49,149 nucleotides of DNA from Sagittula sp. P11 (GTDB lineage: Bacteria; Pseudomonadota; Alphaproteobacteria; Rhodobacterales; Rhodobacteraceae), in NCBI RefSeq assembly GCF_002814095.1, contig NZ_CP021919.1, positions 1-49,149 of the forward strand, given 5' to 3'. Positions 23,554 through 39,695 of this stretch are shown here, in pieces (the first letter of the stretch is position 1; each line of letters begins with the position of its first letter). The notes below the pieces were generated by a model. It saw only the letters and a program-made list of their open reading frames with translations, was not told the origin of the DNA and ran no database searches. Position numbers and translations under genes: made by a program.

Positions 23554-23598
23554 AGTAACTAGATGGTTACTTTTAGGCAGGCGCGGCAGTTTGGTCAA
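23554..23598 (-). promoter_or_regulatory. Promoter and operator A of the acyl-CoA dehydrogenase unit
   Basis: On the minus strand TTGACC (23598-23593), a 17-base spacer and TAAAAG (23575-23570) form a promoter. The palindrome AGTAAC-N6-GTTACT (23554-23571) overlaps the -10 and the start point and ends just before the ribosome site. The same motif occurs at four other promoters in this region (23641, 27852, 38402 and 39680 areas), pointing to one repressor, probably the TetR protein at 38520. Confidence 0.7.
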
Positions 23599-23612
23599 GT
23601 CCCTCATGAGGG

Positions 23613-23657
23613 TTGATTTGCCGCCGCCGATCTGCGCTATATAACCATGCAGTTACT
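23613..23657 (+). promoter_or_regulatory. Promoter and operator B of the aldo/keto reductase-MaoC unit
   Basis: TTGATT (23613-23618), an 18-base spacer and CTATAT (23637-23642) form a plus-strand promoter. ATAAC-N6-GTTAC (23641-23656) overlaps the -10 and start point, followed by GGGAGG before the ATG at 23672. It is divergent from operator A, so this intergenic region has two operators. Confidence 0.68.
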
Positions 23658-23671
23658 TATGGGAGGACGGC

Positions 23672-24685
23672 ATGAAACCCGATGAGAAGGTGAAATTCGG
23701 ACGCGTCGATCTGGAGGTGACCCCCTTCGGATTCGGCACTGCCCCGATCGGCAACATCTTTCGCGAGATCGACGAGGACACCTCGGACGCGATGATCCGG
23801 GAGGCGTGGGATCAGGGCGTGCGCTACTTCGACACCGCGCCGATGTACGGCCACGGGCTGGCCGAACTGCGCACCGGCCACGGGCTGCGCTGGAAGGACC
23901 GCGACGATTTCGTGCTGTCCTCGAAGGTCGGGCGCATCCTGAAACCGGCGCGGAAGGCCGACATCGACTACGCGCCATGGACCAACGCCGGGCGCTTCAC
24001 GATGCACTTCGACTACAGCTACGACGGCACCATGCGCAGCTTCGAGGACAGCCTGCAGCGGCTGAACCTCGAACGGATGGACATCTGCTTCATCCACGAC
24101 ATCGACGTCTTCACCCGCGGGACCGAGCAGCCGGAAGTGTTCCGGCAGGCGATGGATGGCGCGTGGAAGGCTCTGTCGGAGCTGCGCGACCAGGGTGTGG
24201 TCAAGGCAATCGGTGTCGGCGTCAACGAGTGGGAAGTCTGCCACGCCGCCCTGCAACAGCGCGACTTCGACTGCTTCCTGCTGGCCGGGCGCTACACCCT
24301 GCTGGAACAGGAATCGCTCAACGAATTCCTGCCGCTCTGCGAGGAACGCGGTGCGGCAGTCGTGGTCGGCGGCGGCTTCAACTCCGGCATCCTCGCCACC
24401 GGGGCGAAGGAGGGCGCAAAGTACAACTACGCCCCCGCCCCGGCAGAGATCATGGATCGCGTCCGCCGGATCGAGGCGGTCTGCGCAGACTACGACGTGC
24501 CCCTGCCCGCCGCCGCGCTGCAGTTCGTCGTGGCGCACCCCGCGGTGCCGACCTTCATGGCGGGCACGCGGACGGTGGAGCAGTTGCAGCAGAACCTCGC
24601 GTGGTTCAGCCACCCGATCCCCGATGCGTTCTGGGCGGACCTGAAAGCCAAGGGACTGCTGCGAGAAGACGCCCCCACACCATGA
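23672..24685 (+). CDS. Aldo/keto reductase (D-threo-aldose 1-dehydrogenase / pyridoxal 4-dehydrogenase group)
   Basis: 337 aa with a GGGAGGA ribosome site. The TIM-barrel AKR pattern is clear: 'VTPFGFGTAPIGNIF', 'YFDTAPMYGHGLAE' (catalytic Asp and Tyr), 'VLSSKVGRIL' (catalytic Lys) and 'ICFIHDID' (His). It continues with 'GVVKAIGVGVNEW' and 'FLLAGRYTLLEQ', which are marks of the L-fucose / D-threo-aldose 1-dehydrogenase branch that oxidises free aldoses at C1 to lactones. The gene is divergent from the acyl-CoA dehydrogenase and overlaps the following MaoC gene by ATGA. It would make a sugar lactone/acid from an imported sugar or sugar-like compound (inference). Confidence 0.85.
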   Translation: MKPDEKVKFGRVDLEVTPFGFGTAPIGNIFREIDEDTSDAMIREAWDQGVRYFDTAPMYGHGLAELRTGHGLRWKDRDDFVLSSKVGRILKPARKADIDYAPWTNAGRFTMHFDYSYDGTMRSFEDSLQRLNLERMDICFIHDIDVFTRGTEQPEVFRQAMDGAWKALSELRDQGVVKAIGVGVNEWEVCHAALQQRDFDCFLLAGRYTLLEQESLNEFLPLCEERGAAVVVGGGFNSGILATGAKEGAKYNYAPAPAEIMDRVRRIEAVCADYDVPLPAAALQFVVAHPAVPTFMAGTRTVEQLQQNLAWFSHPIPDAFWADLKAKGLLREDAPTP

Positions 24686-25137
24686 GCGGCAGGACACTCG
24701 GGCCGGGCCAGTATGGCCTGGCCGACCTCCGGACCGGCGACGTGATCGAAACCGGGCAATGCACGGTGACACCTGCGCTGATCGACGCCTTCGCCGCCAT
24801 GACCGGCGACCGGTTCAAGATCCACATGGACCGCGACGCCGCCCTGCGCCACGGGTTCCGCGACCGGGTGGCACACGGGCTGTTGGTACTGTCTCTGGTC
24901 GATGGGCTGAAAAACCAGGCTCCGGCGCAGTTCGCGGCGCTGGCCTCGCTCGGCTGGGACTGGAGCTTTTCCGCCCCGGTCCTCGCCGGGGACAGCATCG
25001 CCGCGACGATCACCGTCACCGGCCTGCGCGCCACCTCTGACGGAAAGCGCGCGGTCGCCACTCTGGACTTCGACGTGACGAACCAGCGCGGCGAAACCGT
25101 GCAGCGCGGGGTGAACCGGCTGATGATCTACGCCTGA
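24682..25137 (+). CDS. MaoC-family (R)-specific enoyl-CoA hydratase-like protein
   Basis: 151 aa hot-dog fold protein. 'DAFAAMTGDRFKIHMDRDAAL' carries the hydratase 2 motif with the catalytic Asp and His (usually D-x4-H), and 'FRDRVAHGLLVLSLVDGL' is the matching helix. The ATG lies within the AKR stop (ATGA), so both are made together. It probably hydrates or dehydrates an acyl-CoA intermediate of the TetR-controlled pathway. The end meets the Dabb gene end convergently with 21 bases between. Confidence 0.85.
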   Translation: MSGRTLGPGQYGLADLRTGDVIETGQCTVTPALIDAFAAMTGDRFKIHMDRDAALRHGFRDRVAHGLLVLSLVDGLKNQAPAQFAALASLGWDWSFSAPVLAGDSIAATITVTGLRATSDGKRAVATLDFDVTNQRGETVQRGVNRLMIYA

Positions 25138-25138
25138 C

Positions 25139-25156
25139 CGCCCCCGACAAGGGGCG
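25139..25156. terminator. GC-rich stem-loop between convergent genes
   Basis: CGCCCC (25139-25144) pairs with GGGGCG (25151-25156) around a 6-base loop, in the 21-base gap between the MaoC stop and the Dabb stop. No T run on either side, so at best a weak or factor-aided terminator for both directions. Confidence 0.35.
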
Positions 25157-25158
25157 CG

Positions 25159-25470
25159 TCAGAGCTCGATATCGCAAACGAAGACACCCTCCGCGCCACC
25201 CTCGACGCAGGCAACGATATCGGCGCCGATGGCCTGATGCACCTCGTCGACAAGGTAGGCGTCACGCACCTCCGCGTCGCGGAAATCGAACCAGAACATG
25301 TCGAGGAAACCGCGCACCAGCGGCGTCTCGACCGAGACGTTCTGCCGGTGTTGGAAATCCTCGATGCCGTCGATCCGGTCGGCCAGCCCGGCCAGCCGGT
25401 CGTACAGCGCCTGTTTCGTCGCCGCGTCCACGTCCCCGCGGAACCGCAGGTGCACAAGATGTCGGATCAT
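25159..25470 (-). CDS. Dabb-family (stress-responsive A/B barrel) protein
   Basis: 103 aa. 'MIRHLVHLRFRGDVD' at the start and 'YDRLAGLADRIDGIEDFQHRQNVSVE' are typical of the Dabb dimeric alpha/beta barrel. 'DMFWFDFRDAEVRDAYLVDEVHQAIG' carries the family His. Dabb proteins often sit inside catabolic clusters; some are aldolase- or cyclase-like enzymes (olivetolic acid cyclase is a plant member), most have no known activity. It is the last gene of the CoA-transferase unit, 3 bases after the enoyl-CoA hydratase gene. Confidence 0.82.
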   Translation of the reverse strand: MIRHLVHLRFRGDVDAATKQALYDRLAGLADRIDGIEDFQHRQNVSVETPLVRGFLDMFWFDFRDAEVRDAYLVDEVHQAIGADIVACVEGGAEGVFVCDIEL

Positions 25471-25473
25471 CGT

Positions 25474-26259
25474 TTACTCTCCCCTGCCGCCGAAATCCGG
25501 CGGTCGTTTCTCCCTGAAGGCCGCGACGCCCTCCTGCAACTCGTCGCTGGCCGCCGCAATCCGCCCGGCGAGGGCGTCGAGAACACGCTCCCGCTCCTCG
25601 CCCTCGGCGGCATTGACCAGCATCTTGGTCAGCTCGGTCGCCAGCGGCCCGCGTTTCAACAGCGCCTGCGCCAGATCGCGGGCCGCCCCAAGGCTCTCGC
25701 CCTGCGGCACCACCCGGTCGGCCAGACCCGCGCGCAAGGCCTCCTCCGCCGACAACACCTCTCCGAACAGTGCCATGCGGCGGACCACCTGCGCGCCAAA
25801 GCGGCGCACGGCCCGCTGCGTCCCCGACCACCCCGCGATGATCCCCAGCCCGGTTTCCGGCTGGCCGAAGCGCACATGGTCCTCGGCGATTCGGTAGTCG
25901 GCGCAGGCGGCCAGCTCCAGCCCGCCGCCCAGCACCGGGCCGTTCAGCGCGGCGATCACCGGCTGCCGCAGCCGGGCCAGACGGTCGAGGACCGCGTGGC
26001 CGTCGCGCACCCAGTGGCGCCCGAACGCGGCGGGGCCTTCCGCGCTCCACGCGGCAATGTCGCCCCCGGCACAGAAACTGCGCCCGCTGCCCGTCAGGAT
26101 CAGGACGCCAATGTCCTCGCGCCGCTCGACCTGCCGGCAGAGATCGGCAAGCGCCTCCATCATCGCCGCGTCCAGCGCATTGCGCTTGTCCTCGCGCGTC
26201 AGGCGCAGCACGCCGATTCCGCCCCCGGCTTCCAGCGAAAGATGGGGCCAGCCGGTCAT
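25474..26259 (-). CDS. Enoyl-CoA hydratase/isomerase family protein
   Basis: 261 aa from the ATG at 26259 (ATGA overlap with the CoA-transferase stop); a frame from 26304 would lie within that gene. Crotonase fold marks: 'LTREDKRNALDAAMMEAL', the oxyanion segments 'FCAGGDIAAW' and 'NGPVLGGGLELAACADYRIA', and 'FGQPETGLGIIAGWSGTQRAVRR' with an active-site Glu. It probably hydrates the enoyl-CoA made by the acyl-CoA dehydrogenase. It is part of a coupled CoA-transferase-hydratase-Dabb unit. Confidence 0.88.
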   Translation of the reverse strand: MTGWPHLSLEAGGGIGVLRLTREDKRNALDAAMMEALADLCRQVERREDIGVLILTGSGRSFCAGGDIAAWSAEGPAAFGRHWVRDGHAVLDRLARLRQPVIAALNGPVLGGGLELAACADYRIAEDHVRFGQPETGLGIIAGWSGTQRAVRRFGAQVVRRMALFGEVLSAEEALRAGLADRVVPQGESLGAARDLAQALLKRGPLATELTKMLVNAAEGEERERVLDALAGRIAAASDELQEGVAAFREKRPPDFGGRGE

Positions 26260-27836
26260 GCCCGGGCAAGCTCCAGCGCCATCGTCCCCGGCTGGAACAG
26301 ACACGCGTCCATGGTCTTCAGATCGTTGGCAACCCGCAGCTCCGTGGCCGCCTGATCCAGGATGTCCTGCTGCACGTCCAGTCCCGGCGCCACCTCCGTC
26401 ACGACCAGCGCGCCCTCGACCAGCCGGATCACGCAGCGCTCCGTCACGTAGGTCACGTCCTGACCCAGCTCCCGCGCCCGCGCGCCCGAAAAGGACACCT
26501 GGTCGACCGCATCGACGAACTTCGCGACCTTGCCCTCGCTGTCGATCACCAGTTGCCCGTCCTCCACCCGCATCTTCGCCCCGGCGTTGAAGTTGCCGGA
26601 GAACACGATCTTGCGGGCGCGCGCCGTGATGTCGACGAATCCCCCGGCCCCGGCGGTGCGATGCGGCACGCCGCGCAGCCGCGAGACGTTGACCGACCCG
26701 TCCCGCCCGACCTCGAGGAAGGACAGCAGCGAGGCATCGAATCCCCCCGCCTGAAAATAGGTGAACTGGTGCGGCGAGGCGACGAAGGCCTCCGCGTTGG
26801 CGGCGCAGCCGAACTTGAAGTCCAGGAGCGGCACGCCGCCCACCGCGCCCTGCTCGATCATCCAGGTGACCGCACCGTGCAGCCCCTCCTCGACAAGGAT
26901 CCGCGGCACGTTGGCCGAGATGCCGAAGCCGATGTTCACCGCCCAGCCTTCGCGCAACTCCTGCGCCACGCGGCGGGCGATGACCTTGCCCACGTTGAAA
27001 TCCGCCGGGCGGAACGTGTGCAGCGGGCGGATCAGCTCGCCGGAGATGGCGGGGTCGTAGTCGGTCGCGGTGGTCTGCAACTGCCCGGGCGCCTCGACGA
27101 CCACGTCCACCAGGATGCCCGGCACGCGCACGTCATGCGGCCGGATGGAGCCGTTCTGCGCCACCCGCTTGACCTGCGCGATGACCAGCCCGCCGGAGTT
27201 GCGCGCGGCCAGCGCCAGCTCCATCGCGCCGAGGTAGGCGCCCTCCTGTTCGAAGCTCAGGTTGCCGCGCTCGTCCGCCGTGGTGGCGCGGATGATTGCC
27301 ACATCCGGCCGGATCGCCGGGAAATAAAGCCAGTCCTCGCCCTCGAACTCCCGGTGGAAGACCAGCGGTTCGGCCCGCGCGGCGTCGTTCATCGCGCAGC
27401 CTTCCAGATCGGGATCGACGAAGGTCTGCAGCCCCACCTTGGTCAGCACGCCGGGCCGCTTGGCCGCCCCCTCGCGCAGCATGTCGAAGACGATGCCCGA
27501 GGGCACGTTGTAGGCCTTCACCTGCCCGGCGGTAATCATCTGCCAGATCTTCGGCGGCTCCGCCTTCGTCGGGCCCGAGGGGTAGGACCCGCCGATGATC
27601 TTCGTCAGCATCCCCGGCTTGGCGATGTGATCCACACCCGGCGTGCCGAACATGTCCCCGGCCGCGATCGGATGAACCGAGGTCAGGTTGCGCGGCGATC
27701 CCGTCGCGTCGAACCGCGCGCCAAGCGCGGCCAGCACGGCGTCGGGACAGCACAGCCCGCTCGACGCGTTCACGGCGACGATCGCACCATCCCCGATCCG
27801 GCGGACGGCCTCCTCTGCGGTCGCGGTCTTGGACAT
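26256..27836 (-). CDS. Acyl-CoA:acetate / 3-oxoacid CoA-transferase, single-chain (YdiF/PCT type)
   Basis: 526 aa from the ATG at 27836; the frame upstream to 27941 crosses the promoter and is rejected. It is a fused alpha-beta family I CoA-transferase. The first half has 'RIGDGAIVAVNASSG' and 'IIGGSYPSGPTKAEPP', the second half has 'NIGFGISANVPRILVEEG' and the catalytic Glu in 'MIEQGAVGGVPLLDFKFG'. Such enzymes activate a short-chain, often hydroxylated, acid by moving CoA from acetyl-CoA. Here it would be the entry step into the CoA-dependent part of the pathway. It is divergent from an aldo/keto reductase with operator C between. Confidence 0.9.
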   Translation of the reverse strand: MSKTATAEEAVRRIGDGAIVAVNASSGLCCPDAVLAALGARFDATGSPRNLTSVHPIAAGDMFGTPGVDHIAKPGMLTKIIGGSYPSGPTKAEPPKIWQMITAGQVKAYNVPSGIVFDMLREGAAKRPGVLTKVGLQTFVDPDLEGCAMNDAARAEPLVFHREFEGEDWLYFPAIRPDVAIIRATTADERGNLSFEQEGAYLGAMELALAARNSGGLVIAQVKRVAQNGSIRPHDVRVPGILVDVVVEAPGQLQTTATDYDPAISGELIRPLHTFRPADFNVGKVIARRVAQELREGWAVNIGFGISANVPRILVEEGLHGAVTWMIEQGAVGGVPLLDFKFGCAANAEAFVASPHQFTYFQAGGFDASLLSFLEVGRDGSVNVSRLRGVPHRTAGAGGFVDITARARKIVFSGNFNAGAKMRVEDGQLVIDSEGKVAKFVDAVDQVSFSGARARELGQDVTYVTERCVIRLVEGALVVTEVAPGLDVQQDILDQAATELRVANDLKTMDACLFQPGTMALELARA

Positions 27837-27842
27837 ATCCGG

Positions 27843-27901
27843 TTGCCTCTTAGTAACTAACTGGTTATTTGCAATATGCCGCCAAGTCGTGCCACGATCA
27901 A
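27843..27901. promoter_or_regulatory. Divergent promoters with operator C (CoA-transferase / aldo-keto reductase)
   Basis: Minus strand: TTGATC (27901-27896), 17-base spacer, CATATT (27878-27873), driving the CoA-transferase. Plus strand: TTGCCT (27843-27848), 17-base spacer, TATTTG (27866-27871), driving the AKR. The operator AGTAAC-N6-GTTATT (27852-27869) lies at the minus start point and within the plus spacer, so one bound repressor could block both. Confidence 0.62.
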
Positions 27902-27959
27902 GCCCGATATTGCCGCCCGTCACGCGGATCACGCGGCCCATTCACAGGGAGAGCCAACC

Positions 27960-28778
27960 GTGACCATCTATTTCGAAAAGACCTATCAACGCTCGTTCGG
28001 CACGTTTCCCCTGACGGGGCAGGAACTGCACGATGCCGTTCTCGCCGCCGCCGAGGTGGGCTATCGCGCCTTCGACACCGCGCAAATGTACGGCAACGAG
28101 GCCGACACCGGCGCGGCGCTCAGGGCCACCGGCCTCAGCCGAGATGAGCTGTGCATCACCACCAAGGTCGACATCGCCAACTTCAGCGAGGAGGCGTTCC
28201 TGCCCTCGGTCGAGGAAAGCCTGAAGAAGCTGATGATCGACCAGGCGGATGTGCTGCTCCTGCACTGGCCGACTCCGGGCGGCGACATCCGCCTGTCGCT
28301 GGAGCTGCTGCAGCAGGCGCACGACCGGGGGCTGGCCCGGCACATCGGGGTGTCGAACTACACCGCCCAGATGATGCACGACGCCCGCGCCATCGTGGAC
28401 GCGCCGCTGGTCACCAACCAGGTCGAATTCCACCCGCTGCTCAATCAGGACAAGCTGCTGACCGCCGCGACCGAGACCGGCATCCCGCTTGCCTCCTATT
28501 GCTCCGTGGCGCGCGGCGAGGTGTTCAAGCACGCGATCTTCGGCGAGATCGGCGAAACCTACGGCAAGAGCGCCGCGCAAGTCGTGCTGCGCTGGATCCT
28601 GCAGAAGGGCGTCAGCATCAACACCATGTCCACGAATCCCGCCAACATCGCCGCGAACTTCGACGTGATGGACTTCACCCTCTCGTCCATCGACATGGCG
28701 CGGATCGAGGACATGACCCGCACCGGCTACCGGATCGTCGGCAAGGACCTCGTGCCCTACGCACCGGATTTCGACTGA
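27960..28778 (+). CDS. Aldo/keto reductase (2,5-diketo-D-gluconate reductase group)
   Basis: 272 aa from a GTG codon at 27960 with GGGAGAG in front; the frame upstream to 27876 has no ribosome site and lies in the promoter. AKR tetrad: Asp and Tyr in 'RAFDTAQMYGNE', Lys in 'LCITTKVDI', His in 'VLLLHWPTPG'. 'HIGVSNYTAQMM' and 'VTNQVEFHPLLNQDKLL' place it with 2,5-diketo-gluconate reductase-like AKRs, acting on keto sugars or other carbonyls with NADPH. It stands alone between divergent operator C and a terminator, and would be co-expressed with the CoA-transferase unit. Confidence 0.86.
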   Translation: MTIYFEKTYQRSFGTFPLTGQELHDAVLAAAEVGYRAFDTAQMYGNEADTGAALRATGLSRDELCITTKVDIANFSEEAFLPSVEESLKKLMIDQADVLLLHWPTPGGDIRLSLELLQQAHDRGLARHIGVSNYTAQMMHDARAIVDAPLVTNQVEFHPLLNQDKLLTAATETGIPLASYCSVARGEVFKHAIFGEIGETYGKSAAQVVLRWILQKGVSINTMSTNPANIAANFDVMDFTLSSIDMARIEDMTRTGYRIVGKDLVPYAPDFD

Positions 28779-28840: not shown

Positions 28841-30445
28841 TCAGCGGTTTCCCCGCACCAGGTCGGCGGCCTTCTCGCCGATCATGATGGTGGGGGCATT
28901 GGTGTTGGACCCGATCAGGCTCGGCATGGCCGAACTGTCGCAGATCCGCAGGCCGTCCACGCCGCGCACCCTGAGCTGCGGATCGACAACCGCCATGGGA
29001 TCGCTCTCCGGCCCCATCTTGCAGGTGCAGGTCGGGTGGTAGGACGTGCGCCCGAACTGTCGGGCATAGGCTTCGTAATCGGCCTGCGTCCTGACACTGT
29101 CGTCGGGAAAGCAGATCCTGCGGAAATGTTTCTGCAGCGCCGCCTGTTCAAAGATCTCGCGGCTGATCTTCACCCCCTCGACCGAGGTCTTCAGATCCTC
29201 CGGGTCGCCCAGGAAATTCGGATCGACCACGGGCAGCGCCGCAGGGTCGGAGGACCGCAGCCGCACCGTCCCGCGCGACCTGGGGCGCACCGCGTAGCTG
29301 TTCAGCGTGACGCCCGACGACCCCTTCGGCACCGAAGGCACCCCCGCCTCCGCCCCCGCGCCCGCAAGGAAATGAAACTGCAGGTCGGGGATCGGCAGGG
29401 AGCGGTCGGCATACCAGAAGGCCCCGCCCTCCACCACGTTCGAGGTGACCGGCCCGGACCCGAACAGCAGGTATTGCGCCCCAGCCCAGGCCATCCAGTG
29501 CGGCTTGTTGTACTTGTCGAGGCTCTGGTGCCCGTTCAGCTCCGCCACGATGTCGATGCCGAAATGGTCGGTCAGGTTCTCGCCCACGCCGGGCAGGTCG
29601 GCCACCACGTCGATGCCATGCTCCCGCAGGTGCGCCGCCGGTCCCATCCCCGACAGCATCATCAGCCGCGGCGATCCGATGGCCCCGGCAGTCAGCAGCA
29701 CCTCCGATGCGGCGCGCGCCGTCGTCCGCGTCCCCTTCTGCGCATAGTCGACGCCAACCGCGCGGCCCCGCACCACCACGATCCGGTGCACCAGGCACCC
29801 GGTCCGGACGGTCAGGTTGGGCCGCTTCATCGCCGGGCGCAGGTACCCCACCGCCGCCGAACAGCGCCGGCCGTTCTTCGTGGTGGTCTGGTAGATGCCC
29901 GAACCTTCCTGCACCGCGCCGTTGAAATCCGGGTTGTAGGGAATGCCGCGCTGCTGGCAGGCCTGCAGGAAGGCGCGGGTCATCGGCTGCGGCTCCTTCA
30001 GGTTCGACACGCCCAGCTCGCCCTCCGTCCCGTGCCACTCCCCGGCCAGGAAGGTGTTGCCCTCGGAGCGCAGGAAGTAGCGTTTCACCTCGGCAAAGGA
30101 CCAGCCTTCGCAGCCTTCGTCGTTGGCCCAGCGGTCGTAGTCCGCGGGATGGCCGCGGGTGAACACCTCGGCGTTGATCGACGACCCGCCGCCGATCACG
30201 CGCGCCTGCGCATAGGGAATCTCGCGGTTGTTGGCGTGCTTCTGCGGCGCCGTCACCATCCCCCAGGTGAGCGGCCCGGTGGTCATCTTGGCAAAGCCCA
30301 CCGGCATGTGGATCAGCGGATGGGTGTCCTTGCCCCCGGCCTCCAGCAGCAGGACGCGGGCGGAGGCGTCTTCGGTCAGCCGGTTGGCCAGCACGCAGCC
30401 TGACGACCCGCCGCCCACGATGATGTAGTCATACTCCTCCGACAT
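28841..30445 (-). CDS. GMC-family FAD oxidoreductase (choline/alcohol dehydrogenase-like)
   Basis: 534 aa. FAD-binding 'IIVGGGSSGCVLANRLTED' at the N-terminus, GMC signature 1 around 'VIGGGSSINAEVFTRG', signature 2 'GAIGSPRLMMLSGMGP', and the catalytic region 'SYHPTCTCKMG' (active His) with 'SNTNAPTIMIGEKAADL' at the end. GMC enzymes oxidise alcohols (choline, PEG, sugars) to aldehydes or ketones. The start overlaps the aldehyde dehydrogenase end by 17 bases, so alcohol and aldehyde oxidation are coupled. The BetA-like pairing does not prove choline as substrate, since the transporter is of sugar type. Confidence 0.9.
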   Translation of the reverse strand: MSEEYDYIIVGGGSSGCVLANRLTEDASARVLLLEAGGKDTHPLIHMPVGFAKMTTGPLTWGMVTAPQKHANNREIPYAQARVIGGGSSINAEVFTRGHPADYDRWANDEGCEGWSFAEVKRYFLRSEGNTFLAGEWHGTEGELGVSNLKEPQPMTRAFLQACQQRGIPYNPDFNGAVQEGSGIYQTTTKNGRRCSAAVGYLRPAMKRPNLTVRTGCLVHRIVVVRGRAVGVDYAQKGTRTTARAASEVLLTAGAIGSPRLMMLSGMGPAAHLREHGIDVVADLPGVGENLTDHFGIDIVAELNGHQSLDKYNKPHWMAWAGAQYLLFGSGPVTSNVVEGGAFWYADRSLPIPDLQFHFLAGAGAEAGVPSVPKGSSGVTLNSYAVRPRSRGTVRLRSSDPAALPVVDPNFLGDPEDLKTSVEGVKISREIFEQAALQKHFRRICFPDDSVRTQADYEAYARQFGRTSYHPTCTCKMGPESDPMAVVDPQLRVRGVDGLRICDSSAMPSLIGSNTNAPTIMIGEKAADLVRGNR

Positions 30446-31958
30446 GATCCCCCCTCACGCGATCCAGGGCGTGCGTTTTCCCGATCTCGACATGCACCGA
30501 CTTCACCTGGGTGTATTCCTCGACCCCGTACATGCCCGCCTCCCGGCCCCAGCCGGACTGCTTGAACCCGCCAAGCGGCAGCTCCGGCCCGCCGGCCAGC
30601 GTGGTGTTCACCCAGAAACGACCCGCCTGCACCCGGCGCGTGACCATCAGCGCCTTGTCGATGTTCTTTGTCCAGACGCTCGCCGCAAGCCCGTAGTCGG
30701 TGTCGTTGGCCATGGAGATCGCCTCCTCCACCGTGTCGAAGGGCATGACCGTCAGAACGGGGCCAAAGATCTCCTCGCGCGCGATGGCCATGTCGGCGGT
30801 CACGTCGCCGAAGACGGTCGGCGCGATATACTGGCCGCGCCCGAAATCCAGCGCCGTTCCGCCGCAGATCAGCCGCGCACCCTCCGCCTGCCCCTTCTCG
30901 ATGTAGGACAGGATCGTGGCGTTCTGGGCATCGGTGGTGATCGCGCCGATCTGGGTCGCCTCGTCCAGCGGATCGCCCACCACTGCCCGGGCCAGCTTGT
31001 CCCGCACCTTCTGGGCGAATGCGTCCGCGACAGAACGTTCGACGATCAGCCGCGACCCGGACACGCAGCATTGCCCGGTGTTGAAGGCGATGCCGAAGGC
31101 CACCCCGTCCGCCGCGTCGTCGAGGTCCGCGTCGGCAAAGACGATCTGCGGGTTCTTCCCGCCCAGCTCCAGCCCCAGCTTCTTGAAGTTCGTCCGGCCC
31201 GCCGCCTCGACCACGCGCCGCCCCACGGCAGTCGAGCCGGTGAAGGACAGCATGTCGACCTTCGGATGCTCGATCAGCGCCTGCCCGATGGTGGACCCCG
31301 ATCCGGTGACCACGTTCATGCAGCCGTCGGGCAGCCCCGCCTCCGTCAGGATTTCCGCAAGAATCAGCGTCGTGGCGCTCGTCACCTCCGAAGGCTTCGC
31401 AACGATGGTGCAGCCGGAGGCCAGCACATAGGGCACCCGCTCGCACAGGATGAGGAAGGGGAAGTTCCACGGCGTGATGATGCCCACCACCCCCACCGGC
31501 TCGCGCGTGACAAGGCCCAGCATCCCGTCGCCGAGGTTGTTGAAGCTGTCGCCGTGCAGGCTCCGCGCAAGGCCAGAGGCATAATCGAACATGTCCGCGC
31601 AGCCCGCCACCTCGCCGCGCGCCTGGCTGATCGGCTTGCCGTTCTCCAGCGTCTCGAAATAGGCGATTTCCTCGGCGCGTTCGCGGATCAGCGCCCCGGC
31701 CTTCAGCAGCACGGCGGCCCGCGCCTGCCCGCCATGGCCCGACCACCGCCGGTCGTCGAAGGCGGCGCGCGCCGCATCCACCGCCCTGTCGAGATCCCGG
31801 GTCGTGCATTTCGGAATCCGGGTCACCGGCACGTCATGCCCGGGCGAGCGGCGCTCGAACACCTCGCGGGGTCCGGCGGGCACAAAGGCGCCGTCGACGA
31901 AAAAGCCGAACGCGCGCGGTTCGGACGGCAGCGAAAGCCGTGTGCTGCTGGTATCCAT
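30429..31958 (-). CDS. NAD(P)-dependent aldehyde dehydrogenase
   Basis: 509 aa from the ATG at 31958 with an AGGAGAG ribosome site. Typical ALDH marks: 'ITPWNFPFLILCERVPYVLASGCTIVAKPSEVT', the catalytic Glu in 'LELGGKNPQIVFADADLD', the catalytic Cys in 'FNTGQCCVSGSRL', and 'EEIFGPVLTVMPFD'. It lies between the cupin and the GMC oxidoreductase and probably oxidises the aldehyde made by one of the alcohol dehydrogenases. Resembles betaine- or lactaldehyde-type ALDHs, but substrate cannot be assigned. Confidence 0.92.
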   Translation of the reverse strand: MDTSSTRLSLPSEPRAFGFFVDGAFVPAGPREVFERRSPGHDVPVTRIPKCTTRDLDRAVDAARAAFDDRRWSGHGGQARAAVLLKAGALIRERAEEIAYFETLENGKPISQARGEVAGCADMFDYASGLARSLHGDSFNNLGDGMLGLVTREPVGVVGIITPWNFPFLILCERVPYVLASGCTIVAKPSEVTSATTLILAEILTEAGLPDGCMNVVTGSGSTIGQALIEHPKVDMLSFTGSTAVGRRVVEAAGRTNFKKLGLELGGKNPQIVFADADLDDAADGVAFGIAFNTGQCCVSGSRLIVERSVADAFAQKVRDKLARAVVGDPLDEATQIGAITTDAQNATILSYIEKGQAEGARLICGGTALDFGRGQYIAPTVFGDVTADMAIAREEIFGPVLTVMPFDTVEEAISMANDTDYGLAASVWTKNIDKALMVTRRVQAGRFWVNTTLAGGPELPLGGFKQSGWGREAGMYGVEEYTQVKSVHVEIGKTHALDRVRGDHVGGV

Positions 31959-31989: not shown

Positions 31990-32559
31990 TCAGCTGCGCC
32001 TGTCCAATGCGTGCCGCCAGTCGTTCCACCCGCCATCGACGGAGGACGGCGCGGCGTGCCAATGCGGCATGGCCTCGCCGGTGGCAGGGTCGCGGGCGGG
32101 AATGGGCAGCATCATGATCCGCTTGCAGGCGTGGACGTAATCCTCCTGCGTGAGGAACTGCTCCTGGATGTCGTCCCAGTCGCGCCCGTCGGGATAGCCG
32201 CCGCACATGTGGATGTTCTCGGACTGGGCCGTCATCTCGTGGCTGACGCCCGCCGGCATGACGATCACGTCCCCCGCCTCGATCCGGACCTTTGTCCATC
32301 CGCCCTCGCCCACGGAAAGCGAGAACTCCATCCAGCCCTGCGCACAGCCAAGGCATTCATGCGTCGTCGAATGGAAATGCGCGTATTCGTAGATGCCGGG
32401 GTAATCCCAGTTGTTCGACCAGCCGTTGCTGCGGAACCGTTCCTTCAGCGCCTCTGCCCCGCCGCCCGGCACCGCGCCGCGATGCACCAGAAGCGGAAAG
32501 CGGCTGTTGGGGATCAGCCCCTGCGGCTGCGAGGTGTAGGCTTCGGTGGTGATGGCCAT
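31990..32559 (-). CDS. Cupin-domain protein
   Basis: 189 aa from the ATG at 32559 with an AGGAGGAG ribosome site; an ATG at 32586 would overlap the upstream gene and is less likely. Cupin motif 1 is partly seen in 'YEYAHFHSTTHECLGCAQG' (His and Glu metal ligands), motif 2 in 'IEAGDVIVMPAGVSHEM'. YjlB-like cupins are seen beside sugar and alcohol catabolic genes; they may be isomerases, lyases or accessory proteins. It sits between the Zn alcohol dehydrogenase (19 bases upstream) and the ALDH gene. Confidence 0.82.
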   Translation of the reverse strand: MAITTEAYTSQPQGLIPNSRFPLLVHRGAVPGGGAEALKERFRSNGWSNNWDYPGIYEYAHFHSTTHECLGCAQGWMEFSLSVGEGGWTKVRIEAGDVIVMPAGVSHEMTAQSENIHMCGGYPDGRDWDDIQEQFLTQEDYVHACKRIMMLPIPARDPATGEAMPHWHAAPSSVDGGWNDWRHALDRRS

Positions 32560-32578: not shown

Positions 32579-33604
32579 TCATTCACTCATCACGATCTGG
32601 GTCTTCAGGTCCCCGGACCGGTCGCCGAGCGTGTCGAACGCCAACTGAATGTCGTCGAGGGCAAAGCTGGCGCGGGTAAACGGCTCCGTCTTCAGCCGCC
32701 CGTGCACCAGCAGCGTCAGCGCGTCGTGCATGTCCTGTCCCATTCCCGCGACCGACCCCTTGACCGAATTCTCCTGCAGGATCGTGTCGAGGATCGGCAG
32801 CGCCAGCGTCTCGTCCGGGCCCGTCAGCCCGAAGGCGGCAAGGTGCCCGCCCCGGCGCACCAGCCGCAGGGCAGCGGCGTAAAGCGCGGGGTTGCCCACG
32901 CTCTCGATCACCAGGTCGGCGCCACGCCCGTCGGTCGCCTCCATCACCGCCTGCCTCAACTGCCCCGGATCGGACACACCGATGTCCGCGCCGCAGTCCA
33001 GCGCCATGCGCACACGATCCGGGGAGAGGTCAGTGACGATGATCGGGGCAACCCCGATGGTCCGCAGAAGCTGGACATGCAGGTTGCCGATCGGCCCCGC
33101 GCCGATCACCAGCGCCGACTGCCCGAAGGTCACCTGCGCCTTGCGCGCCGCGCGCACCACGCATGACAGCGGCTCGGTCAGGGCCAGCACCTCGAAGGGC
33201 ACATGCTCCGGCGCGGGCATCACCAGCCGCGCGGGCACCGTCATGTAGTCGGCAAAGGCGCCGTCCATGGTGATGCCCATCTGCTGCATCCCGGGGCAGT
33301 TCAGGATCTCGTTGCGGCGGCACCAGTAGCAGCGCCCGCAGCCGATGTTCATGTCGACCACGGCCTTTGTCCCGACCTCCGGCCCGTCGACCCCCGCCCC
33401 CAGCGCCGCGACGGTGCCGGTGAACTCGTGACCCGGCACCATGGGCAGGCTCTCTGCCGCGTAATGTCCGTTGAAGATGTGCAGGTCGGTGCCGCAGATG
33501 CCGACCCGCGCGATCCGGATCAGGATCTCGCCGCGCCCGGGTTTCGGGATCGGCCGCTCCTCGATCTCGAACCGCCCGGGTTCCTTCAGCACTGCCGCAC
33601 GCAT
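32579..33604 (-). CDS. Zinc-dependent alcohol/polyol dehydrogenase (MDR family)
   Basis: 341 aa. Catalytic zinc ligands are in 'GICGTDLHIF' and 'VPGHEFTGTV', structural zinc Cys residues in 'CGRCYWCRRNEILNC', and the Rossmann motif is 'VIGAGPIGNLHVQLL'. It is closest to sorbitol / threonine / L-galactonate type dehydrogenases that oxidise a secondary alcohol of a polyol or sugar acid. The start shares bases with the permease stop (ATGATG); an ATG three bases upstream (33607) is equally possible. Its link to the ABC permease by overlap suggests it acts early on the imported compound. Confidence 0.88.
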   Translation of the reverse strand: MRAAVLKEPGRFEIEERPIPKPGRGEILIRIARVGICGTDLHIFNGHYAAESLPMVPGHEFTGTVAALGAGVDGPEVGTKAVVDMNIGCGRCYWCRRNEILNCPGMQQMGITMDGAFADYMTVPARLVMPAPEHVPFEVLALTEPLSCVVRAARKAQVTFGQSALVIGAGPIGNLHVQLLRTIGVAPIIVTDLSPDRVRMALDCGADIGVSDPGQLRQAVMEATDGRGADLVIESVGNPALYAAALRLVRRGGHLAAFGLTGPDETLALPILDTILQENSVKGSVAGMGQDMHDALTLLVHGRLKTEPFTRASFALDDIQLAFDTLGDRSGDLKTQIVMSE

Positions 33605-34545
33605 CATTTCACGATCCTCATCTTCGACCGGTCGATGGTCATCGCGATGGCAGCGATCAGGATGATGCCGAAGATCATCTGCTGCATGGTCGCATCCACC
33701 TCGAGGTAGACCATGGCCGAGCGTATCACGACAACGATCAATGTCCCGACCAGAGTGTTGATGACCCCGCCGACCCCGCCGGTCAGCGGCGTGCCCCCGA
33801 CCAGCACCGCCACGATGGCGAGGATCAGGAACCCGTTCGCCAGGTTCGCGTCGCCCCCCGACAGCTTGACCGAGAACATCAGCCCGGCAATCGCGGCAAA
33901 CGTCCCCGACAGCGCAAAGGCAAGGATCTTGATCCGGTCGACCTTCAGGCCCGAGGCCACGGCGGCCAGCTCCCCTGCCCCCACCGCCTTCAGCGCGCGG
34001 CCAAAGGTTGTGCGGGTCTGCAGGAACCACGCCACCGCCAGCAGCACGCCCGCGATGATCAGCTCATGCGGGACGCCCGCGGTGTTGCCGAACATCCAGC
34101 CAAAGCTCGCGTCCCGTATCTCCGCATCCATCGACAGCGCGCGTTCGCCCGACAGGTAGCGCGCGCCGGAAAGCGCGATGAACCCCATGGCCAGCGTCGC
34201 AACGAAGGAGGGCACGAACTGCCGCGTGGTGATCCAGCCCGACAGCGCGCCGATGCCGAAGCCCGCCACGATACAGACCACCGCGACCAGCACCCCGAAC
34301 TGGGCCAGGTAGACGGTCGCCACCACGGTCACGAGGTTCGCCACCTGCTGCACCGACAGGTCGATCCCGCCGATGTAGATCGCGAAGGTCATCCCCAGCG
34401 CCATGATGAACAGCGGCACGATATCGGCCACCAGCGCCACCATGCCCGACGGGTTGAAGAAGGCCGGGTTGACCACGCCCACCAGGATCACCAGCACCGC
34501 CAGCGTGAACCACGGGAACCAGGGTTTCAGTTTCTCCAGTGACAT
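33604..34545 (-). CDS. Sugar-type ABC transporter permease (RbsC family)
   Basis: 313 aa with about 8-10 membrane helices. 'PLFIMALGMTFAIYIGGIDLSVQQVANL' and 'GGTPLTGGVGGVINTLVGTLIVVVIRSAMVYL' are conserved BPD_transp_2 segments. It is one of two permeases of the system and lies 10 bases after the ATPase gene. Two different permeases imply a heterodimeric channel. Confidence 0.9.
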   Translation of the reverse strand: MSLEKLKPWFPWFTLAVLVILVGVVNPAFFNPSGMVALVADIVPLFIMALGMTFAIYIGGIDLSVQQVANLVTVVATVYLAQFGVLVAVVCIVAGFGIGALSGWITTRQFVPSFVATLAMGFIALSGARYLSGERALSMDAEIRDASFGWMFGNTAGVPHELIIAGVLLAVAWFLQTRTTFGRALKAVGAGELAAVASGLKVDRIKILAFALSGTFAAIAGLMFSVKLSGGDANLANGFLILAIVAVLVGGTPLTGGVGGVINTLVGTLIVVVIRSAMVYLEVDATMQQMIFGIILIAAIAMTIDRSKMRIVK

Positions 34546-34555
34546 GCCGTCCCCC

Positions 34556-36060
<1,505 letters not shown>

Positions 36061-36071
36061 CGACCCGCCCC

Positions 36072-37082
36072 CTATTTCACGAAGCTGATGGTTTTGCGGT
36101 TGGTCGACAGGATCACGGCAAGGATCACGAGGATGCCCAGCACACCGTCCTGCACGTAGCCGGGCAGCCCGATCACCACCATGCCGTTGCCGATGACAAA
36201 GACGATCAGCACGCCGACCAGCGTGTTCCACACGCCGCCGATCCCGCCCCAAAGCGCGGTGCCCCCGACCACGACCGCGGTGATCGACAGGAACATGAAG
36301 TTGTTGCCGGTGGCGGTCTCGGCGATGCCGATGCGGCCCACCGCCAGCAGCGCGCCCACCGAAAAGAACACGCCCGCCAGCGTGAACCCCATGATCCGCA
36401 CCCGGTTGACGTTCAGGCCGGAGGCAATCGCCAGGTCCTCGCCCCCGCCCACCGCGTAGAAGTTGCGGCCCAGCGTGGTGCGCGTCTGGATGAACCAGGC
36501 GATCAGCAGGAAGACCGCAGCGACATAGACCATCAGAGGAAAGTTCAGGATGCGCTGGGTCAGGAGCGCGCGGAACAGCTCGTCCTCGATGCGGATGCGG
36601 TCGCCGCCGGTCATCACCATGGCAAGCCCCGTCCCCACGAACCCCATGGCGAGCGAGGCCATGAACGACGGGATCTTCAGCTTGACGTGGATCAGCCCGT
36701 TGACGAACCCCAGCGCCGCACCGACCAGCATGGCGATAGGGATGGCAAGCCAGGCCCAGCTAGCCAGCGTGCCCCCCAGCCACAGGAAACAGAAGGCGAA
36801 GGACACCGCGCAGACCGACACCGTCCCCTCCATCGACAGGTCGATGGACCCCATGATGATGATGAAGGTCACGCCGATCGCCACCATCAGCGCGGGCGAG
36901 GCGGCGATCAGGATGCGCGCGAAGTTGCGTGTCGACAAGAAGCGCGGCTCCATCACGGCGAAGACCGCGCAGAGCACCAGCAGCACCAGAAGCGGCGCCC
37001 ATTTCGCCAGCGTCTCGCGCCCGATCCCGGCACCGGCCCGGCGCGCGCCTTCTGTCCTGCCCGTGGTTTCAGTGATGGCCAA
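36072..37082 (-). CDS. Sugar-type ABC transporter permease (RbsC family)
   Basis: 336 aa from a TTG codon at 37082, chosen for the GGGGAGG ribosome site 7 bases before it; an ATG at 37136 would place this site inside the gene. 'SPALMVAIGVTFIIIMGSIDLSMEGTVSV' and 'VVVGGTALWGGIGGVWNTLVGVLIVFVIGNGMVVIGL' are typical of the family. It is the first permease of the transporter, 11 bases before the ATPase gene. Confidence 0.88.
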   Translation of the reverse strand: MAITETTGRTEGARRAGAGIGRETLAKWAPLLVLLVLCAVFAVMEPRFLSTRNFARILIAASPALMVAIGVTFIIIMGSIDLSMEGTVSVCAVSFAFCFLWLGGTLASWAWLAIPIAMLVGAALGFVNGLIHVKLKIPSFMASLAMGFVGTGLAMVMTGGDRIRIEDELFRALLTQRILNFPLMVYVAAVFLLIAWFIQTRTTLGRNFYAVGGGEDLAIASGLNVNRVRIMGFTLAGVFFSVGALLAVGRIGIAETATGNNFMFLSITAVVVGGTALWGGIGGVWNTLVGVLIVFVIGNGMVVIGLPGYVQDGVLGILVILAVILSTNRKTISFVK

Positions 37083-37178
37083 GATGTGTCCTCCCCAAAG
37101 CGGCCGGCGCGGTCCTCTGACCGTCATCCGGCGCATGGGCCAGCCGGGAACGCGCCCGGCTGGCCCGGTCCTCCCGGA

Positions 37179-38291
37179 TCAGTTGTAGGCGATGGGTCCG
37201 TTCGACGGGCCCCAGAAGTCGTTCCAGTCGTAGCTCGGCACGCTGTCGAGGTAGTTCGCCTTGAACTCCAGCGCGTCCTCCGGCTGCACCATGATGGTCG
37301 GGCCGTAGAATTCGCGGTGCTCGTTGGGTTCCTCGGACGGTTTGAAGGTGCCGATGGCCGCGTGATAGGCCAGCGCCGCGGTGATGCCGCCGCCCCAGTG
37401 CGGGTTGGTGAACACGGTGGCCAGGATCTTGCGGTCCGCGACCAGCTGCACCGCCTGCGGGTTGCCGTCATAGGACACGATGGGCATGTCCTCGATCCCC
37501 TCGGCCCGCAGCGCCTCGAGCACGCCATAGGCGATGGTGTCGTTTGCGCAATGCACGCCGGTGATCTCGTCGCCATAGCGCGTCAGGAAGGCGGACATCA
37601 CCTGGTTGGCCTTCTGGGTGTCCCAGTCCGCCGGTTCCGCCGCCAGCAGTTCCACATCCGGGTAATCCTCCAGCGCGTTCTTCAGGCCCTGAAGCCGCTC
37701 GATGGCCGGGTTGTTCGACGCGATCCCGCCCAGGTGCACGACGCCACCCTTGCCGCCCATCGCCTCAAGCAGGATGCGCGCGGTCTCTTCCGCCGGGCCC
37801 TCGTCCGACCAGCTCATGTGGCTGACGTAGTTGTCGCCGAAATCCCACGGGTGCAGGTCGTCGGTCTTGTTCCACAGGGTCGAGACATAGGCGTTCGCCT
37901 CCGCCACCGCCTCCACCACCGGACGCGCGTTCGGCGCGTCGTTGGTGTCGATGGCAAGCGCGAGGTTGCCGCCCGTCTTCGCCAGAATCGCCTTCACGTC
38001 GGCCAGCGACTTCTCCGACGACCCTTCGTTGATGAGGTGCGTGAGCGCGTCCTTCGACATGCCGAGGCTTTGCACGAAGGCCTCGCCGCCCGACACGATC
38101 TCGTTCCAGTAGGGGTTGGTGCGGTTGCGGTAGGACCACGCGATGGTCGGGTCGGTCAGCGCAGCCCGCGCCATGTTCGGACCCAGCGCGCCAAGTGCCG
38201 CCGCCCCGCCCAGCCCGTAGGCCGACGCGAACAGGAAGTTCCGGCGGTTGATTTTCTCTTTCTCGATGAAGCCCTTGATGAAATTCGACAT
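37179..38291 (-). CDS. Sugar-type ABC transporter substrate-binding protein, Tat-type signal
   Basis: 370 aa. The N-terminus 'EKINRRNFLFASAYGLGGAAALG' has a twin-arginine (RRxFLF) export signal, so the protein is probably folded before export. The mature part is a ribose-binding-type periplasmic binding fold: 'IAWSYRNRTNPYWNEIVSGGEAF', 'LALAIDTNDAPN', 'GVHCANDTIAYGVLEAL' and 'PIVSYDGNPQAVQLV'. 'WSDEGPAEETARILLEAMGGKG' is the inter-lobe helix. It is the first gene of the leftward transporter-dehydrogenase unit, downstream of operator D. Ligand unknown: a sugar, polyol, cyclitol or sugar acid. Confidence 0.9.
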   Translation of the reverse strand: MSNFIKGFIEKEKINRRNFLFASAYGLGGAAALGALGPNMARAALTDPTIAWSYRNRTNPYWNEIVSGGEAFVQSLGMSKDALTHLINEGSSEKSLADVKAILAKTGGNLALAIDTNDAPNARPVVEAVAEANAYVSTLWNKTDDLHPWDFGDNYVSHMSWSDEGPAEETARILLEAMGGKGGVVHLGGIASNNPAIERLQGLKNALEDYPDVELLAAEPADWDTQKANQVMSAFLTRYGDEITGVHCANDTIAYGVLEALRAEGIEDMPIVSYDGNPQAVQLVADRKILATVFTNPHWGGGITAALAYHAAIGTFKPSEEPNEHREFYGPTIMVQPEDALEFKANYLDSVPSYDWNDFWGPSNGPIAYN

Positions 38292-38393
38292 GGTTTTCCT
38301 CCCTCAACGGCGCTGTGCCGTCCTCCTGAAACACGCGTGATGTCCCGGCCCCTCCGGGGTGCCGCACCGCCCTTCATCGCGGACGGTCGCCAG

Positions 38394-38436
38394 ATAACGC
38401 ACTAACTGGTTACTTCCTTGTTCATCGAATCGTCAA
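38394..38436 (-). promoter_or_regulatory. Promoter and degenerate operator D of the sugar transporter unit
   Basis: On the minus strand CTTGACG (-35 hexamer 38436-38431), a 17-base spacer and GTAACC (38413-38408) lie in the TetR-transporter divergent region. The right half-site GTTAC with TAACTGGTTACTT context (38404-38415) matches operator C, but the left half-site is poor; an ATAAC lies 4 bases further out (38394-38398). It is the weakest of the five operator copies. Confidence 0.5.
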
Positions 38437-38519
38437 GCCCCATGAAAGCTTTGGGGCGAAAACGGCCCATGGCAGCGAGCGGAAGCTTTTGACCGCGCCC
38501 CGCGAAGTGAGGTAGGGGC

Positions 38520-39191
38520 ATGGGAACCACGCCGGGGCGAAGGGAAGAGATGGCAGACGACACAACCAGGAAGACCCGCGATGCCGACGCGACGCGCGCG
38601 CGCATCCTTGCCGCCGCGAAGAAGGAATTCGCCAAGAGCGGTCTGGGCGGCGCCCGTGTCGACGAGATCGCCGACCGCGCCAAGGCCAACAAGCGGATGA
38701 TCTACCACTACTTCGGCAACAAGGAGGACCTGTTCCGCATCGTGCTGGAGGAGGCCTACACCGACATCCGGACCGCCGAGCAGTCGCTGGAACTGGAACA
38801 CCTGCCCGCCCGCGACGCGCTGGAAAAGCTGATCCGCTTCACCTGGGATTACTACCTGAAGAACCCGGAATTCATCACGCTGGTGAACAGCGAGAACCTG
38901 CACAAGGCCCGCCACCTGAAGAAGTCCGAAAAGATTGACGTCCTGTTCCAGCGCTTCGTCGGCATGGTCGGCGGCCTTCTGGAACGCGGCGTCGAGGAAG
39001 GCGTCTTCCGCCCCGGCATCGACCCCGTGCAGCTCAACATCACCATCGCCGCCATCGGCTACTACTACCTGACCAACCGCTTCACCGGCTCCATCGTCTT
39101 CCGGCGCGACCTGATGTCCGCCGAGGCCCTCGAAGAGCGTCTGGCCTTCAACATCGAAACGATCATGCGGCTGGTCTGCATCGAGCCCTGA
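38520..39191 (+). CDS. TetR-family transcriptional regulator
   Basis: 223 aa. Helix-turn-helix at about residues 25-70: 'RARILAAAKKEFAKSG', 'GGARVDEIADRAKANKRMIYHYFGNKEDLFRIVLEE'. The C-terminal ligand domain has 'LEKLIRFTWDYYLKNPEFITLVNSENLHKA' and 'FVGMVGGLLERGVEEGVF'. The start at 38520 has GAGGT at 6 bases; an internal ATG at 38550 with a weaker site would remove 10 residues. It is divergent from the transporter unit and is the only TetR in the window, so it is the best candidate to bind the GTAAC-N6-GTTAC palindromes at five promoters. An acyl-CoA or pathway acid is a likely inducer. Confidence 0.9.
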   Translation: MGTTPGRREEMADDTTRKTRDADATRARILAAAKKEFAKSGLGGARVDEIADRAKANKRMIYHYFGNKEDLFRIVLEEAYTDIRTAEQSLELEHLPARDALEKLIRFTWDYYLKNPEFITLVNSENLHKARHLKKSEKIDVLFQRFVGMVGGLLERGVEEGVFRPGIDPVQLNITIAAIGYYYLTNRFTGSIVFRRDLMSAEALEERLAFNIETIMRLVCIEP

Positions 39192-39194
39192 ACG

Positions 39195-39626
39195 TCACCC
39201 CTGCGTCAGCCCAAGCGCCCGGATCGCCGCCTCGGCGCAGGCGATGTCCTCGTGCTCCTGCGCGCCCGACACGCCAAGCCCGCCGATGCAGGCCCCCTCC
39301 TCGAAGACCGCGAGTCCCCCGCCCCAGGCGATGAACCTTTGCCGCGTGGCAAGGCCCAGCGACAGGGTCGGGCTGGCGGCCATGCGTTCGCCGAAGGCCC
39401 GCGTCGATTTCCGCAGCGTGCCGGCGGTATAGGCCTTGTCCACCGCGAAGGCCGCGACGGGCGGCGCGGCACCGTCCGTCCGGCCGAAGGCAACGAGCGT
39501 GCCGAAGGGATCGGTGACCGCCGCCGCAACCTCCCAGCCGTTGTCCCGCGCGTGGGTCATCGCCGCCTCCACAAGGGCAAGCGCCGCTGCATAGGTGATC
39601 TGGGGTCGGGTCTGGCTGATCTGCAT
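39195..39626 (-). CDS. HbpS/GlcG-family haem-binding-like protein
   Basis: 143 aa. 'AALALVEAAMTHARDNGWEVAAAVTDPFGTLVAFGRTDGA' and 'AFAVDKAYTAGTLRKST' are the core of the GlcG/HbpS family (also the PduO C-terminal domain). 'FIAWGGGLAVFEEGACIGGLGVSGAQEHEDIACAEAAIRAL' is the conserved end. Members bind haem or corrinoid or act as accessory proteins in diol, glycolate and alcohol catabolic clusters; the precise role is unclear. It is convergent with the TetR gene (3-base gap) and has its own copy of the operator upstream. Confidence 0.85.
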   Translation of the reverse strand: MQISQTRPQITYAAALALVEAAMTHARDNGWEVAAAVTDPFGTLVAFGRTDGAAPPVAAFAVDKAYTAGTLRKSTRAFGERMAASPTLSLGLATRQRFIAWGGGLAVFEEGACIGGLGVSGAQEHEDIACAEAAIRALGLTQG

Positions 39627-39679
39627 GGTCGTTGGGTCCTTCGAGAGGGCGGGCGACGCCGGGATGGCCGCCGCACCAT

Positions 39680-39695
39680 GTAACCATTCGGTTAC
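39680..39695 (-). promoter_or_regulatory. Operator E upstream of the HbpS/GlcG gene
   Basis: GTAACC-ATTC-GGTTAC is a perfect 16-bp palindrome with 6-base arms, 54 bases before the ATG at 39626. It is the best-formed copy of the TetR-type operator in this window. No clear -10 hexamer could be fixed next to it. Confidence 0.65.

What the first reader, a model, noticed from the sequence alone, without database searches (positions are those of the whole stretch)
23554..39695. Five related GTAAC-N6-GTTAC palindromes define a 16 kb TetR regulon
The motif occurs at 23554-23571, 23641-23656, 27852-27869, 38394-38415 (degenerate) and 39680-39695 (perfect 16-bp form). The sites lie before the acyl-CoA dehydrogenase, two aldo/keto reductases, the CoA-transferase, the sugar ABC transporter and the HbpS/GlcG gene. 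Four overlap or touch a promoter with good -35/-10 spacing. The only TetR gene (38520) lies inside this set. I saw no copy elsewhere in the window. This ties otherwise scattered operons into one pathway under one signal.
Basis: partly seen in the sequence, partly recalled or inferred. Interest (0 to 1): 0.82.

Follow-up and report, generated by a model that had tools for sequence, protein, structure and literature searches.

The report
TetR regulon for an unknown catabolic pathway
A single repressor protein appears to switch on and off about twenty neighbouring plasmid genes that import and break down an as yet unidentified alcohol- or sugar-like compound, and the same switch is kept in many relatives; it is a sound but ordinary kind of gene control.

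Summary
Four sites match RTAACYANNYRGTTAY exactly (23555-23570, 23641-23656, 27853-27868, 39680-39695); the rest of the 5.58 Mb genome has none. The fifth, "degenerate" site (38394-38415) has a broken left half, yet is the best conserved: GCAC and GTTAC are invariant in 72 of 72 ABC-transporter/TetR intergenic regions. In 80 TetR-ortholog loci, 39 of 40 perfect GTAAC-N6-GTTAC sites lie within 250 bp upstream of a cluster gene, a zone of 4.1% of the bases. Among 198 same-family genomes the motif occurs in 12 of 14 with a close TetR ortholog and 3 of 184 others. A TTG[AC] -35 box sits at near-constant distance from the operators of several promoters. Best reading: a TetR-family dimer represses transporter and enzyme operons and is released by a pathway metabolite. 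Binding, repression and ligand are inferred. Corrections: the genes form one contiguous block, not scattered operons; the regulon probably reaches left to 19623; the transporter ATPase gene is frameshifted in this assembly. The substrate is unknown. A new member of a known kind; no published description was found in the searches made.

The parts
23555..23570 (.). operator 1, GTAACTAGATGGTTAC, before the acyl-CoA dehydrogenase operon (centre 21 bp from its start)
   Evidence: TTGACC 28 bp upstream of the operator on the - strand
23641..23656 (.). operator 2, ATAACCATGCAGTTAC, before aldo/keto reductase 1 (centre 24 bp from its start)
27853..27868 (.). operator 3, GTAACTAACTGGTTAT, between CoA-transferase (-) and aldo/keto reductase 2 (+)
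38394..38415 (.). operator 4, ATAACGCACTAACTGGTTACTT, between SBP (-) and TetR (+); most conserved site, overlapping half-sites
39680..39695 (.). operator 5, GTAACCATTCGGTTAC, before the HbpS-like gene (centre 61 bp from its start)
38550..39191 (+). TetR-family regulator (TetR_N + TetR_C_29), likely start 38550
   Evidence: identical to the MA-2 protein; 80 ortholog loci
37179..38291 (-). sugar-type ABC transporter substrate-binding protein (SBP)
36072..37076 (-). ABC permease 1
34556..36060 (-). ABC ATP-binding protein, frameshifted by a one-base difference from MA-2 near 34811
33604..34545 (-). ABC permease 2
32579..33607 (-). zinc alcohol dehydrogenase
31990..32559 (-). cupin/ARD-like protein (Pfam scores below cut-off)
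30429..31958 (-). aldehyde dehydrogenase
28841..30445 (-). GMC oxidoreductase
27960..28778 (+). aldo/keto reductase 2
26256..27836 (-). CoA-transferase (fused, FadX/YdiF-like)
25474..26259 (-). enoyl-CoA hydratase/isomerase
25159..25470 (-). Dabb-domain protein
24682..25137 (+). MaoC-like hydratase
23672..24685 (+). aldo/keto reductase 1
22396..23541 (-). acyl-CoA dehydrogenase
21629..22399 (-). SDR (3-ketoacyl reductase-like)
20465..21616 (-). DUF993 protein (annotated in MA-2 as dihydrodipicolinate synthase family)
19623..20465 (-). sugar phosphate isomerase/epimerase-like (AP_endonuc_2)
39195..39626 (-). HbpS/GlcG-like protein

Best explanation
A local TetR-family repressor controls a contiguous catabolic block. 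Without substrate, TetR dimers sit on GTAACYANNYRGTTAC palindromes that lie at or just after the -10 region of the acyl-CoA dehydrogenase, aldo/keto reductase 1 and CoA-transferase promoters and probably of the HbpS-gene promoter, and on a special overlapping-half-site version at the ABC transporter promoter, and block RNA polymerase. A substrate or intermediate taken up by the ribose-type ABC transporter binds the TetR C-terminal domain and frees the promoters. The enzymes then oxidise an alcohol to an acid (GMC, alcohol and aldehyde dehydrogenases), activate it (CoA-transferase) and degrade it by a beta-oxidation-like route (acyl-CoA dehydrogenase, hydratases, SDR, DUF993). Shown: sites, conservation, position relative to conserved -35-like boxes, co-occurrence with TetR. 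Inferred: binding, repression, ligand, operon extents, substrate class.
For: Motif exact matches only here in the genome. 80 ortholog loci: RTAACYANNYRGTTAY up to 1 mismatch 72 sites in 50 of 80 loci, reversed control 2 sites in 2 loci; perfect GTAACN6GTTAC 40 sites against 3 in the reversed control, 39 of the 40 upstream of cluster genes. Top-ranked inverted repeat de novo. Co-occurrence 12 of 14 vs 3 of 184 genomes, Fisher 7e-15; without own genome 11 of 13, 8e-14. TTG[AC] at -23/-22 of the SBP operator in 70 of 73, at -30 to -26 of the acyl-CoA dehydrogenase operators in 17 of 17 distinct flanks and of AKR1 operators in 11 of 13. DNA-recognition segment (ANKRM.YHYF) invariant at the letters given in 23 aligned TetRs.
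Against: No binding or expression data. 30 of 80 loci lack a site at up to 1 mismatch of the full pattern within the DNA held (at most about 20 kb). For the plain pattern with 1 mismatch the reversed control is not negligible: 32 sites in 26 loci against 86 in 55. G056 has the TetR but no site; G164 has sites and cluster but no TetR found; the G197 site and one of the two exact G029 sites lie by none of the cluster proteins, and the G197 one flanks a different TetR. No conserved -35 was seen on the TetR side of operator 4, so autoregulation is unproven. The CoA-transferase sites have the box at variable distance (4 of 12 distinct flanks at -30 to -26, 10 of 12 at -33 to -25). The generic promoter scan found nothing.
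Confidence: 0.87

Rival explanations
1. The same sites are bound by this TetR acting as an activator or dual regulator, at least at the transporter promoter.
For: Some TetR-family proteins activate (FasR of M. tuberculosis is called a TetR-like activator in the abstract start of PMC7382501, seen in the listing). Operator 4 differs in form from the others and is the most constrained.
Against: Operators lie at or just after the -10 region or, in several relatives' aldehyde dehydrogenase promoters, apparently in the -35/-10 spacer, where a bound protein should block polymerase.
Confidence: 0.07
2. A different regulator encoded elsewhere reads the palindrome and TetR is a bystander of the cluster.
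For: The motif class also occurs beside an unrelated TetR in G197; a second strong TetR_C_29 match lies on contig C2 of this genome.
Against: The site nearest the TetR gene is the most conserved, TetR presence predicts the motif across genera, and in an annotated S. meliloti block TetR is the only listed transcription regulator from the DUF993 gene to the TetR gene, a toxin-antitoxin pair apart.
Confidence: 0.05
3. The palindromes are chance or neutral repeats.
For: At 2 mismatches the loose motif is not far above chance in the window (7 vs 3.06).
Against: Conservation and position in dozens of other genomes.
Confidence: 0.01

Closest known systems
RutR (E. coli TetR-family repressor of pyrimidine use)
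   Same: TetR fold (Foldseek ranks 4-8, TMq about 0.7); about 16-bp palindromic operator (passage of PMC10891134). That RutR's consensus shares an inner CCANNTGG is recalled, not from a call.
   Different: 24-25% identity; 43.8 bits against the RutR equivalog cut-off of 368; different target genes.
Uncharacterised TetR structures SCO4008 (2d6y) and DIP1788 (3npi)
   Same: Best sequence matches among solved structures, 68 bits each; ranks 2-3 and 15 by fold.
   Different: 25-28% identity; whether they belong to PF17938, and their targets and ligands, were not tested.
FadP, LiuQ, PsrA TetR regulons of acyl-CoA pathways (PMC5343134, passages seen)
   Same: A TetR controlling a CoA-dependent catabolic set, found by the same kind of comparative footprinting.
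   Different: Orthology and motif were not compared here; gene content here includes a sugar-type ABC transporter, GMC and DUF993.

Membership tests
TetR family of regulators | N-terminal TetR helix-turn-helix | tested here: met
   PF00440, 53.4 bits against cut-off 24
TetR family of regulators | all-helical C-terminal ligand/dimer domain | tested here: met
   PF17938 148.2 bits against 26.2; predicted nearly all-helical fold, mean pLDDT 87.3, matches TetR structures
TetR family of regulators | binding to a palindromic operator | not testable with these tools
   strong comparative support only
TetR family of regulators | release by a small ligand | not testable with these tools
   none
RutR | RutR equivalog score | tested here: not met
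   TIGR03613 43.8 bits, cut-off 368
FadR (Bacillus-type TetR) | FadR equivalog score | tested here: not met
   NF053878 50.2 bits, cut-off 200
ScbR family | ScbR equivalog score | tested here: not met
   NF041196 54.5 bits, cut-off 150

The most novel reading that the evidence does not exclude
The operator map delimits an undescribed CoA-dependent catabolic pathway for a polyol-like alcohol, with DUF993 and the isomerase-like protein as new enzymes (in S. meliloti a glycerate kinase sits where MaoC and Dabb lie here), conserved from marine Rhodobacterales plasmids to rhizobial pSymA, and governed by a two-register, unusually constrained operator at the transporter promoter.
Probability: 0.45. 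Interest if true: 0.55.

Novelty: new member of a known kind. Interest (0 to 1): 0.4.

Why it matters
It gives a testable regulator, operator and gene list for a pathway whose substrate is unknown but whose genes are carried by marine roseobacters and by symbiotic rhizobia. Because the operator marks the member genes in each genome, it helps to fix the borders of the pathway (in relatives it also marks a second GMC oxidoreductase and a glyoxalase-family protein) and so makes the substrate search tractable. As gene regulation it is ordinary.

Tried and rejected
Loose motif at 2 mismatches: not informative (in the genome the reversed control is even commoner, 1060 vs 419). Generic promoter scan: nothing found, so -35 boxes were sought by cross-genome alignment. 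Literature: searches over open PMC text showed no paper on this cluster or motif, and none holding 'DUF993'. The lists were capped (15 of 174 and 10 of 141 shown) and only titles and abstract starts were seen; two searches gave one paper each, not read further (one an unrelated Streptococcus paper, one on glycerate kinases that mentions ttuD3). Subscription journals are not held, and the S. meliloti locus numbers and the name ttuD3 used as terms were recalled guesses, not checked. Passages of two papers were read. Substrate: NCBIfam and PDB sequence searches gave only general classes; a DUF993 relative has a solved structure named only 'Uncharacterized protein' (4dnh). Deoxyribonate-, pyridoxine- and cyclitol-type pathways were considered from memory and not adopted, for lack of a test. 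RutR membership was rejected on score. The coding-region control was mostly zero and is not leaned on. The wider motif has control hits as common as real ones, or commoner, in G164 and G056, so only its two sites against no control in G026 are used.

Rows dropped: MA-2 (L109) left out counts (72 of 73 rows used; the window itself is in them); window and L109 left out; hits under 38% identity or 40% cover left out of gene mapping (30-45% identity and 30-60% cover). 10 of 80 loci have no divergent SBP/TetR pair in view and are not. The ortholog cut of 64% identity for the Fisher test was set after seeing the gap to 51%; with all 35 genomes at E<=1e-40 the motif is in 12 of 35 vs 3 of 163. L087/L118 and L075/L122 hold the same DNA and are counted twice; one search counts distinct flanks. 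Confidence was lowered from 0.88 to 0.87 after the recount.
Full report
The window is G000:C7:1-49149, from a 5.58 Mb, 7-contig genome, and carries repA, repB and repC genes, so it is a repABC plasmid or part of one. All 20 cluster proteins of Sagittula sp. MA-2 plasmid p7 that were compared match the window at 96-100% identity, two of them with a break (ABC ATPase in two pieces; aldehyde dehydrogenase aligned over 494 of 500 residues).

The sites. Four of the five reported sites match RTAACYANNYRGTTAY exactly and that form occurs nowhere else in the genome. The plain GTAAC-N6-GTTAC form is perfect only at 23555 and 39680 in the whole genome. The fifth site, ATAACGCACTAACTGGTTACTT at 38394-38415, misses the consensus at three left-half positions.

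What other genomes say. The search for related loci gave 80 loci with TetR relatives of 70-93% identity, by record title mostly Rhodobacterales and Hyphomicrobiales (one record is titled Enemella, which I recall as an actinobacterial name). 245 candidates matched and only the best 80 are kept. In these 1.50 Mb, RTAACYANNYRGTTAY with up to 1 mismatch occurs 72 times in 50 of 80 loci, and the reversed pattern twice in 2 loci. Of 40 perfect GTAACN6GTTAC sites (reversed control 3), 39 lie within 250 bp upstream of a cluster gene and none inside one, though such upstream DNA is 4.1% of the bases. With one mismatch it is 76 of 86, two inside genes, and the reversed control has 32. The loci are related, so these are not independent events. 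The genes marked include the acyl-CoA dehydrogenase, both aldo/keto reductases, CoA-transferase, aldehyde dehydrogenase, HbpS, SBP and a second GMC oxidoreductase, and in three loci a glyoxalase-family protein. A count of all 5-mer inverted repeats, made without the motif, puts GTAAC-N6-GTTAC first (32 of 81 loci).

The transporter/TetR site. In 73 divergent SBP/TetR regions (70 of the 80 loci plus window, MA-2 and S. meliloti; 72 used for the counts) a 23-bp element TTAACGCACTAACTRGTTACTTY is found, with GCAC and GTTAC invariant in 72 of 72; the lowest match to its consensus is 17 of 23, while 1000 shuffles made from five of the regions never exceed 16. In some genomes the left part completes a second, shifted near-palindrome (GTAACGCACTAGTTAG), so the element may hold two overlapping dimer sites; this is inference. 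Searched in 292 genomes of the order, TAAYGCACYADYYRGTTACWT occurs once each in 10, with no control hit, and in all 10 the TetR ortholog lies within about 215 bp.

Co-occurrence. Of 198 same-family genomes, one per genus, 14 have a TetR ortholog at 64% identity or more. The exact motif GTAACYANNYRGTTAC is in 12 of these 14 and in 3 of the other 184, Fisher P 7e-15, or 8e-14 without the own genome. Of the three exceptions, G102 has a 70% identical TetR fragment at a contig end and the cluster at its sites; G164 has the cluster but no TetR found; G197 has a site beside an unrelated TetR. Of the two misses, G026 has two sites in a slightly wider form and G056 has none. One of the two exact sites of G029 lies by none of the cluster proteins.

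Mechanism. Operator centres lie 19-34 bp before the acyl-CoA dehydrogenase start, 23-29 bp before aldo/keto reductase 1 and 24-42 bp before the CoA-transferase. A TTG[AC] box lies 26-30 bp upstream of 17 of 17 distinct acyl-CoA dehydrogenase operators and 11 of 13 AKR1 operators, more variably before the CoA-transferase (10 of 12 at 25-33 bp), 33-35 bp before 4 of 4 HbpS operators, and 22-23 bp upstream of 70 of 73 SBP operators. With a usual spacer the operator lies at or just after the -10. Before the aldehyde dehydrogenase of relatives the box is at -5 or -11 in up to 11 of 16 distinct flanks (6 and 5), which puts the operator in the spacer. This geometry fits a repressor. The TetR protein has TetR_N and TetR_C_29 domains, a nearly all-helical predicted fold (mean pLDDT 87.3) nearest to SCO4942, SCO4008 and RutR, and a conserved recognition segment in 23 orthologs. 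Ligand and sign of regulation are inferred.

Pathway. Oxidoreductases, CoA-transferase, acyl-CoA dehydrogenase, hydratases and SDR suggest alcohol to acid to acyl-CoA and beta-oxidation; in S. meliloti a glycerate kinase sits in the block. The substrate is not identified.

Verdict. The finding is real and the interpretation good, with the corrections given. It is a normal local TetR regulon for a pathway of unknown substrate, hence moderate interest.

Noticed in passing
window 34556-36060: ABC ATP-binding protein gene has a one-base difference from MA-2 p7 near 34811 that breaks the frame at about residue 418 of 501; assembly error or real.
   Followed up: partly
window 14347-19574: TRAP transporter genes, SDR and a degradative-type HMG-CoA reductase (TIGR00532, above cut-off) near a GntR/FCD regulator: looks like mevalonate use, with no copy of the operator at up to 1 mismatch.
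   Followed up: no
window 39983-43433: repA, repB, repC genes: the contig is a repABC plasmid or part of one, a sibling of the 72-kb MA-2 p7.
   Followed up: partly
L112 3386-4442: In genome G197 an unrelated TetR (TetR_C_13) and an ABM-domain gene flank GTAACCATTCAGTTAC, so this operator type may be used by more than one TetR clade.
   Followed up: partly
L053 12491-13009, L064 11838-12353, L070 11760-12275: A glyoxalase/VOC-family gene follows the operator in three relatives; a VOC gene also lies beyond TetR in S. meliloti L111.
   Followed up: partly
G000 contig C2 about 248422: A second strong TetR_C_29 match is coded in the same genome; its operator was not examined.
   Followed up: no
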